Source of the DNA: an uncultured Clostridia bacterium
GTDB taxonomy: Bacteria; Bacillota; Clostridia; UBA1381
Assembly: GCA_947627795.1 (NCBI GenBank)
Contig: CANQXJ010000002.1
Location: 1-64,000 of the forward strand
Direction of reading: 5' to 3'
Length of the DNA: 64,000 nucleotides
Shown: positions 24,148 through 57,400 of the stretch, in pieces
Numbering within the stretch: position 1 is the stretch's first letter
How the letters are laid out: every line of letters starts with the position of its first letter
The notes under the pieces: model-generated
Seen by the model: the letters and a program-made list of their open reading frames with translations, nothing else
The model's database searches: none
Told to the model about the DNA's origin: nothing
Made by a program: the position numbers and the translations under genes

Positions 24148-24176
24148 TTGCAAATTCCGCAAAAATATGCTATAAT
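24148..24176 (+). promoter_or_regulatory. Plus-strand sigma-A-type promoter of short antisense RNA
   Basis: TTGCAA (24148-24153), 17-nt spacer, TATAAT (24171-24176). Confidence 0.75.
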
Positions 24177-24182
24177 AAAAAC

Positions 24183-24275
24183 AGATACAGAGGTATGCCG
24201 TTAAACGGTTGCCTCGTGACTAATTCAGGTTAAAAATGATAACCGTCACTTGGCCGAGCGACGGTTATTGTGCTT
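24183..24275 (+). ncRNA. Candidate RNA antitoxin of a type I TA locus (TSS and end inferred)
   Basis: Starts ~7 nt after the 24171 -10 box and ends at the hairpin 24239-24268; carries gaggtatgccgttaaac, partly complementary to the opposing toxin mRNA leader. Confidence 0.55.
24239..24268. terminator. Shared bidirectional hairpin between convergent transcripts
   Basis: ataaccgtc / gacggttat arms at 24239-24247 and 24260-24268. Confidence 0.65.
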
Positions 24276-24336
24276 TTAGTTCAAAAATTATAAGGATAAT
24301 TATAATCCAAATAATGATTTTGGTGACTTTTTTCAT
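24265..24336 (-). CDS. 23-aa hydrophobic peptide, candidate type I toxin
   Basis: Minus strand ATG 24336: MKKVTKIIIWIIIILIIFELKAQ*, preceded by strong SD AGGAGGTGA (24350-24342); too short for the ORF track. Confidence 0.65.
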   Translation of the reverse strand: MKKVTKIIIWIIIILIIFELKAQ

Positions 24337-24414
24337 GCACGTCACCTCCTTGCCCGCTGTCTGCGGGGTGAGGCTAACCGTCAAACTCGCAATACTTCTG
24401 TATCTGCGAGTTTG

Positions 24415-24443
24415 ATTTTAATACAAAATATGACAAAAATCAA
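24415..24443 (-). promoter_or_regulatory. Minus-strand promoter for the 23-aa peptide mRNA
   Basis: Minus strand TTGATT (24443-24438), 17-nt spacer, TAAAAT (24420-24415); leader hairpin caaactcgca/tgcgagtttg immediately downstream. Confidence 0.65.
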
Positions 24444-57249: not shown

Positions 57250-57400
57250 AAGATAAATAAGTTATTCGAGGTGGTAAATTTCGTGTCGACCACACGCCGA
57301 TGGTATGACAGGGGTTAAGCCCCGAGAGATGCAGGAGTAGGCACGCCTGCCGGATAACTAATCTATTTTGAACCGCTCTGACTTGTCGGGGCGGTTTTTC
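57250..57400 (+). ncRNA. Candidate independently transcribed structured RNA, family unassigned
   Basis: Promoter TTTACA-17-TATAAT (57215-57243); closing helix gttattcg/cggataac (57261-57268/57351-57358); internal helices gtggt/accac, gggg/cccc, gcagg/cctgc; terminator aaccgctctgacttgtcggggcggttttt. Confidence 0.55.

What the first reader, a model, noticed from the sequence alone, without database searches (positions are those of the whole stretch)
24148..24443. Convergent two-promoter locus with the architecture of a type I toxin-antitoxin system
Minus strand: TTGATT-17-TAAAAT promoter, a leader with a strong hairpin (CAAACTCGCA/TGCGAGTTTG), a CCCGC/GCGGG hairpin extended by UCACC/GGUGA that would sequester the SD, a near-perfect SD (AAGGAGGTGA), then a 23-aa peptide MKKVTKIIIWIIIILIIFELKAQ whose stop lies in a terminator stem. 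Plus strand: TTGCAA-17-TATAAT promoter driving a short RNA into the same hairpin. The antitoxin 5' segment GAGGUAUGCCGUUAAAC can pair with the toxin leader GUUUGACGGUUAGCCUC (12 Watson-Crick pairs plus G-U pairs, few mismatches). CAGATACAGA(G/A)GTAT occurs in both RNA 5' regions, suggesting paired loop structures. This layout parallels Fst/par-type and TxpA/RatA-type systems; specific family not established. It sits between trmR and trhP, which are adjacent in B. subtilis.
Basis: partly seen in the sequence, partly recalled or inferred. Interest (0 to 1): 0.78.

Follow-up and report, generated by a model that had tools for sequence, protein, structure and literature searches.

The report
Clostridial small-peptide toxin with twin RNAs
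A 300-base stretch between two tRNA-modification genes encodes a 23-residue membrane-type peptide and an overlapping antisense RNA that probably keeps it silent, and it belongs to a large family of such modules in gut Clostridia for which we found no entry in the databases searched.

Summary
Two convergent promoters, a strong ribosome-binding site buried in a stem-loop, a 23-aa hydrophobic ORF and a shared bidirectional terminator are all present. Both promoters, the ORF and its site are conserved in nine species, all at the trmR-trhP junction. Relatives without the module mostly have only 10-55 bp there. The peptide evolves under purifying selection (dN/dS about 0.2-0.35 in most distant pairs). 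Covariance models show that the locus belongs to a wide family in Clostridia: 55 of 392 sampled genomes, often several copies each, including the cultured Monoglobus pectinilyticus. We found no match in Rfam, Pfam, NCBIfam, PADLOC or PHROGs. Of 117 related loci, 75 have a ribosome-binding site plus an 18-34-aa hydrophobic ORF ending in the terminator, against 2.9 expected. The layout matches the Fst/par type I toxin-antitoxin plan, but the peptide is not an Fst toxin. Also unlike par, the two RNAs of a locus begin with the same sequence (inverted, not direct, repeats) and co-vary as copies. Modules spread as cassettes bounded by their own promoters. Toxicity and transcription are untested.

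The parts
24148..24176 (+). antitoxin-RNA promoter TTGCAA-17-TATAAT (with TG before -10)
   Evidence: conserved in 9 of 9 homologues
24182..24278 (+). predicted antitoxin RNA, about 97 nt (start inferred from promoter, end from terminator)
   Evidence: covariance model R1
24182..24196 (+). twin 5' motif CAGATACAGAGGTAT, antitoxin copy
24190..24215 (+). antitoxin 5' hairpin GAGGUAUGCCGU-UAA-ACGGUUGCCUC
24239..24268 (.). bidirectional terminator stem shared by both RNAs
   Evidence: conserved pairs with two compensatory changes
24265..24336 (-). 23-aa hydrophobic peptide ORF (predicted toxin) MKKVTKIIIWIIIILIIFELKAQ, stop in the terminator stem
   Evidence: dN/dS
24342..24351 (-). Shine-Dalgarno AAGGAGGTGA
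   Evidence: predicted largely paired
24344..24374 (-). SD-sequestering stem-loop GCCUC/GAGGU over CCCGC/GCGGG (like 5'-SL of par)
24370..24386 (-). toxin-leader segment GUUUGACGGUUAGCCUC, possible antitoxin contact and copy of the antitoxin 3' arm
24382..24414 (-). 5' upstream helix CAAACUCGCA...UGCGAGUUUG (like 5'-UH of par)
24392..24406 (-). twin 5' motif CAGATACAGAAGTAT, toxin-mRNA copy
24230..24409 (-). predicted toxin mRNA, about 180 nt
24415..24443 (-). toxin promoter TTGATT-17-TAAAAT

Best explanation
A chromosomal type I toxin-antitoxin module with par-like layout, one member of a large clostridial family. The minus-strand mRNA is made with its SD closed by a stem-loop. When opened, it would yield a 23-aa single-helix membrane peptide that harms the cell's own membrane. 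The plus-strand RNA of about 97 nt is antisense to the mRNA's last ~47 nt (terminator, stop codon, last codons). It is expected to contact the mRNA at the terminator loops, zip into a duplex, and block translation or cause cleavage by a double-strand RNase. The shared 5' hairpin element in both RNAs probably gives a second, locus-specific contact. Shown: anatomy, conservation, selection on the peptide, membership of the wider family, cassette exchange. Inferred: transcription, toxicity, the order of contacts, RNase involvement.
For: The module is at the same site in 9 species with both promoters, SD and peptide frame kept. Peptide dN/dS is mostly 0.2-0.35, with codon-position differences 121/110/193. 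SD sequestration is predicted. The 3' overlap duplex is -87 kcal/mol. The wider family was found by R1 and R2, each built without the other group's sequences: R2 recovers four of the trmR-trhP loci at E about 3-6e-5. 75 of 117 wider loci have SD plus hydrophobic ORF ending in the terminator, against 2.9 +/- 1.6 in shuffles. The plan matches par: convergent promoters, bidirectional terminator, 5'-UH and 5'-SL (PMC7472228). The patchy, exchanged, sometimes tandem distribution is typical of addiction modules.
Against: No expression or toxicity data. 23 of 119 wider loci had no recognised ORF, so some members may be degraded, differently built or false. 5'-5' pairing is not energetically favoured, and binding to the GCCUC arm could even free the SD, the opposite of an antitoxin. 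Conservation of a hydrophobic peptide fits a non-toxic small membrane protein too.
Confidence: 0.75

Rival explanations
1. The peptide is a regulated, non-toxic small membrane protein (stress or envelope function) and the plus RNA is simply its antisense regulator.
For: Peptide under purifying selection; chromosomal site beside housekeeping tRNA-modification genes; small membrane proteins of this size are common (own knowledge).
Against: Patchy presence, frequent absence in close relatives, allele exchange and tandem multicopy families are unusual for a housekeeping function; every locus pairs the peptide with an antisense RNA.
Confidence: 0.15
2. The module is mainly a small non-autonomous mobile repeat (MITE-like): a 300-350-bp pseudo-palindrome with inverted ends that spreads through genomes, the ORF being secondary.
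For: Cassettes 80-92% identical over ~350 bp with unrelated flanks; inverted twin ends; empty sites of 10-55 bp.
Against: The ends are the -35 boxes, with no terminal inverted repeat beyond them and no obvious target duplication in the sites inspected; the peptide and SD are selected; at trmR-trhP the module is swapped in place, as homologous recombination would do.
Confidence: 0.07
3. Chance assembly of promoter-like, terminator-like and ORF-like pieces in an AT-rich intergenic gap.
For: The promoter scan found 3 matches where 1.4 +/- 1.1 are expected in shuffles; short hydrophobic ORFs arise easily in AT-rich DNA.
Against: Conserved across nine species and in a class-wide family.
Confidence: 0.01

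Closest known systems
Fst/par type I toxin-antitoxin family (par of pAD1; PMC7472228)
   Same: Convergent promoters, mRNA with 5' upstream helix and SD-closing stem-loop, short antisense RNA, shared bidirectional terminator as main complementary region, small hydrophobic peptide, plasmid and chromosomal copies.
   Different: Peptide 22-26 aa without the PxxxG(C) motif or the charged Fst tail; repeats are inverted (same sequence in both RNAs) rather than direct; no Pfam/NCBIfam/Rfam match.
TxpA/RatA, BsrG/SR4, YonT/SR6 of Bacillus subtilis
   Same: Small membrane toxin mRNA with an antisense RNA overlapping the 3' end, convergent transcription.
   Different: Toxins 28-60 aa in B. subtilis (PMC6563280); at most weak, far below threshold Rfam BsrG scores in two related loci; no twin 5' element known to us.
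Clostridioides difficile CDxxxx/RCd type I modules (PMC6563280, PMC7699646)
   Same: Clostridial convergent toxin/antitoxin RNA pairs, multiple copies per genome.
   Different: Toxins 34-59 aa with long complementary overlap; the review reports no sequence homology with toxins of other bacteria; no shared 5' element reported in the parts read.
Ibs/Sib of Escherichia coli
   Same: Very short (18-19 aa) almost wholly hydrophobic peptide (own knowledge).
   Different: Sib RNA covers the whole ibs gene; no bidirectional terminator layout (own knowledge, not tested).

Membership tests
Type I toxin-antitoxin (general) | small (<60 aa) hydrophobic membrane-type peptide ORF with RBS, conserved in relatives | tested here: met
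Type I toxin-antitoxin (general) | antisense RNA gene overlapping the toxin mRNA | tested here: met
   promoter, hairpin and terminator conserved, ~47-nt overlap: (sequence level only)
Type I toxin-antitoxin (general) | peptide toxic, and neutralised by the RNA | not testable with these tools
   needs expression experiments
Fst/par family | convergent promoters and shared bidirectional terminator | tested here: met
Fst/par family | 5'-UH and SD-sequestering 5'-SL in the toxin mRNA | tested here: met
   predicted in consensus fold; SD probability unpaired near 0 for most positions. The outer UH pairs are lost in G020 and G005, and G030's SL is drawn differently
Fst/par family | DNA direct repeats DRa/DRb giving RNA-RNA complementarity at the RBS | tested here: not met
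   repeats are inverted and same-sense in both RNAs; a 17-nt imperfect complementarity exists but is not energetically favoured
Fst/par family | Fst toxin sequence with PxxxG(C) and charged C-terminal tail (PF/NF Fst models) | tested here: not met
   no Fst model hit, motif absent in the peptides read:
TxpA/RatA and other Rfam-listed antitoxins | covariance-model match to the Rfam RNA family | tested here: not met
   only BsrG at 20-21 bits against a cut-off of 55 in related loci

The most novel reading that the evidence does not exclude
A distinct class of RNA-controlled toxin modules in which the antitoxin RNA carries a same-sense copy of the toxin mRNA's own 5' leader, so that control depends on the twin leaders (hairpin-to-hairpin exchange or competition for a common binding factor) in addition to 3' antisense pairing, and which spreads as a promoter-bounded ~350-bp cassette through gut Clostridia.
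Probability: 0.3. Interest if true: 0.8.

Novelty: new variant of a known kind. Interest (0 to 1): 0.62.

Why it matters
If right, this is a very common type I toxin-antitoxin family in gut Clostridia (50 of 95 genomes of the order, up to eleven copies in one genome) that the databases searched do not cover. Its covariance models give a direct way to annotate it, and the cultured Monoglobus pectinilyticus gives a place to test it. The twin-leader feature poses a new mechanistic question: why should toxin mRNA and antitoxin start with the same sequence? Whole-module exchange at a fixed chromosomal site shows small addiction modules behaving as swappable alleles.

Tried and rejected
First alignment had five loci in the wrong orientation; redone. 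Rfam with permissive E-values gave only chance-level hits. Unconstrained duplex energy of the 5' regions was not better than shuffles (263 of 1000; 315 of 500), so the 5'-5' pairing was not accepted as demonstrated. Cognate pairing was tested first on a set picked for an identical antitoxin motif, which has no power, then on 80 diverse loci. Part of the same-sense signal reflects relatedness of loci; the within-genome control is weaker but still clear (71 of 20000). A coding role for the plus RNA was rejected: no conserved ORF (G021 loses the AUG that others have). Viral contigs: none with the exact A-type motif, five with the wider motif. Phage records: no match for the window locus; weak 48-base hits of a related locus to Lactococcus phages were not followed. 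No held paper describes the family; papers outside the library were not searched.

Full report
What is there. The window (class Clostridia, a 1.94-Mb metagenome-assembled genome) has a gap of about 350 bp between an O-methyltransferase gene (trmR-like, Methyltransf_3) and a U32 peptidase gene (trhP-like; Peptidase_U32, best NCBIfam model TrhP but below its cut-off). In the gap, a plus-strand promoter (TTGCAA-17-TATAAT, 24148-24176) points at a minus-strand promoter (TTGATT-17-TAAAAT, 24443-24415). Both predicted RNAs end in one bidirectional terminator (24239-24268). The minus-strand RNA carries an SD (24351-24342) and a 23-codon ORF (24336-24265) whose stop lies in the terminator stem. The plus-strand RNA has no conserved ORF.

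It is more than chance. A BLAST search of 70 genomes of the same family gave eight homologues (74-92% identity), all between trmR and trhP. Properly oriented, all nine encode a peptide of 23-26 aa with an SD: MKKVTKIIIWIIIILIIFELKAQ, MKKVTKIIIWVVIILIIFELRAQ, MKKVTKIIIWVVIILIIFELKAQ, MKRVVRIIIIVLIILVMFAQKVQ, MKKVTKIIIFVIIILILTAYKVQ, MKRVIRIITMIIVILIITTQKVQ, MKKVVKIIIFIVIILIATAIKAQ, MKAAKKLIFILIFVIIFLIISAYKVQ, MKAVRIIIFIMIILIILILAAHNVQ. dN/dS is mostly 0.2-0.35 between distant pairs (one pair, G007-G018, exceeds 1), and third-position changes exceed first and second (193 against 121 and 110). Both promoters are recognisable in all nine, with spacing within 1 nt. Both RNAs fold better than every one of 200 shuffles. 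The consensus folds keep the terminator, the antitoxin hairpin, the upstream helix and an SD-closing stem in most members, with a few two-sided changes.

It belongs to a wide family. A covariance model of the antitoxin RNA (R1) found the nine loci at 96-111 bits and a second group at 27-40 bits in many other genomes. Read by eye, these have the same plan: TTGACA-17-TATAAT, an RNA starting AATAGAAAAAGGCAAGACCTCAAACGGTTATGCC, a terminator, and on the other strand a leader, SD and short hydrophobic ORF ending in the terminator. A model built only from that group (R2) hits 50 of 95 genomes of the order and 55 of 392 of the class at E <= 1e-4, up to 11 copies in one genome. It recovers four of the trmR-trhP loci at E of 3-6e-5. 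Outside the class it is rare: four genomes in a 399-genome phylum sample. Exact-motif hits in named genomes are all uncultured Clostridia, mainly from herbivore guts. Five modules sit unannotated in two replicons of the cultured Monoglobus pectinilyticus. In 117 unique loci, 75 have SD plus hydrophobic 18-34-aa ORF ending in the terminator; with the upstream DNA shuffled the mean is 2.9. The peptides fall into a few subfamilies (MDNEYIISFMIILLLLVISIKK, MGKYILRIIFLTIVFLIALTKKVR, MAKKLLFAILEIIILLIIFSIKAQ and the present one). Second codon positions vary least and third most. None matches Pfam, NCBIfam, PHROGs or PADLOC at a meaningful level.

Twin leaders. It occurs only at these two places in the window. 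Across 80 diverse loci, the antitoxin 5' end matches the toxin strand of its own locus in the same sense far better than that of other loci: mean score 20.7 against 15.9, z = 14.6, 0 of 20000 permutations. Antisense complementarity of the same regions is only z = 1.9. Restricted to loci of the same genome the same-sense effect remains (71 of 20000). In Monoglobus, one locus has ACGGTTGTCAT in both RNAs and another ACGGTTAGCC in both. So the two 5' ends are inverted copies that change together. Because the element is itself a hairpin, copies are also partly complementary. It does not pay energetically against the two intramolecular hairpins. The unquestioned complementarity is the 3' overlap (50-nt duplex, -87 kcal/mol).

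Gain, loss and exchange. In relatives lacking the module trmR and trhP are mostly only 10-55 bp apart (e.g. G024 55, G017 16, G014 23, G004 40). The window and its congener G007 share 90-92% DNA identity in trmR and trhP but 78% in the module. The window and G027 share 94% in the module but 76-78% in the flanks. Trees disagree: the module rejects G000+G007 (AU p 3e-5) and the flanks reject G000+G027+G021 (p 7e-6). The module has therefore been replaced in place. In the wider family, modules 80-92% identical over about 350 bp lie between unrelated flanks, with similarity mostly stopping near the two -35 boxes.

Most likely working. Type I toxin-antitoxin. The mRNA is made with its SD closed. 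The plus RNA meets it at the terminator loops and forms the 3' duplex, blocking translation or inviting cleavage. The twin hairpins give a second, locus-specific contact whose form is open. The layout is that of par/Fst as reviewed in PMC7472228: convergent promoters, shared terminator, upstream helix, SD-closing stem-loop. It fails two features of that family: the Fst peptide motif and direct repeats. It should therefore be called par-like, not an Fst system. Binding to the SD-closing arm could in principle free the SD, so the 5' contact might act in either direction; this is stated as an open point.

Limits. No expression or toxicity data were available. Transcript ends are inferred from promoter and terminator positions. 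E-values from the session's covariance models are rough. The large whole-genome searches score few candidates per genome, so copy numbers are lower bounds. The window's organism is named only to class.

Noticed in passing
window 57261-57358 (+): Rfam skipping-rope RNA (RF02924), 57.2 bits, above its gathering score.
   Followed up: no
L049, L051, L057, L062, L089 and similar loci: In one peptide subfamily (MAKKLL...) a strong SD is followed by a hairpin (TATGCTTATGAAAAGTAAGCATA) and a second overlapping frame (MKSKH...), with the hydrophobic ORF starting just behind the hairpin. This may be start-site bypass as in T4 genes 25/38, or control by an overlapping decoy frame.
   Followed up: partly
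L069 (G005:C71), L101/G122:C112 (three copies ~350 bp apart), L135, L154, L194, L198; Monoglobus NZ_OY725742.1 153670-154498: Modules of the wider family occur in tandem arrays of two or three, each with its own RNA.
   Followed up: partly
G000:C80:1200-1291 (L070): The window's own genome holds a second module of the wider family (peptide MRKYIIRIIVLVTAILVTFAEKAK), nearly identical to modules in G022 and G023.
   Followed up: partly
NZ_OY725740.1, NZ_OY725742.1: Records labelled plasmids 16 and 18 of Monoglobus pectinilyticus TSDC17.2-1.2 carry hydrogenase and ComEC genes, so they may be chromosome pieces rather than plasmids.
   Followed up: no
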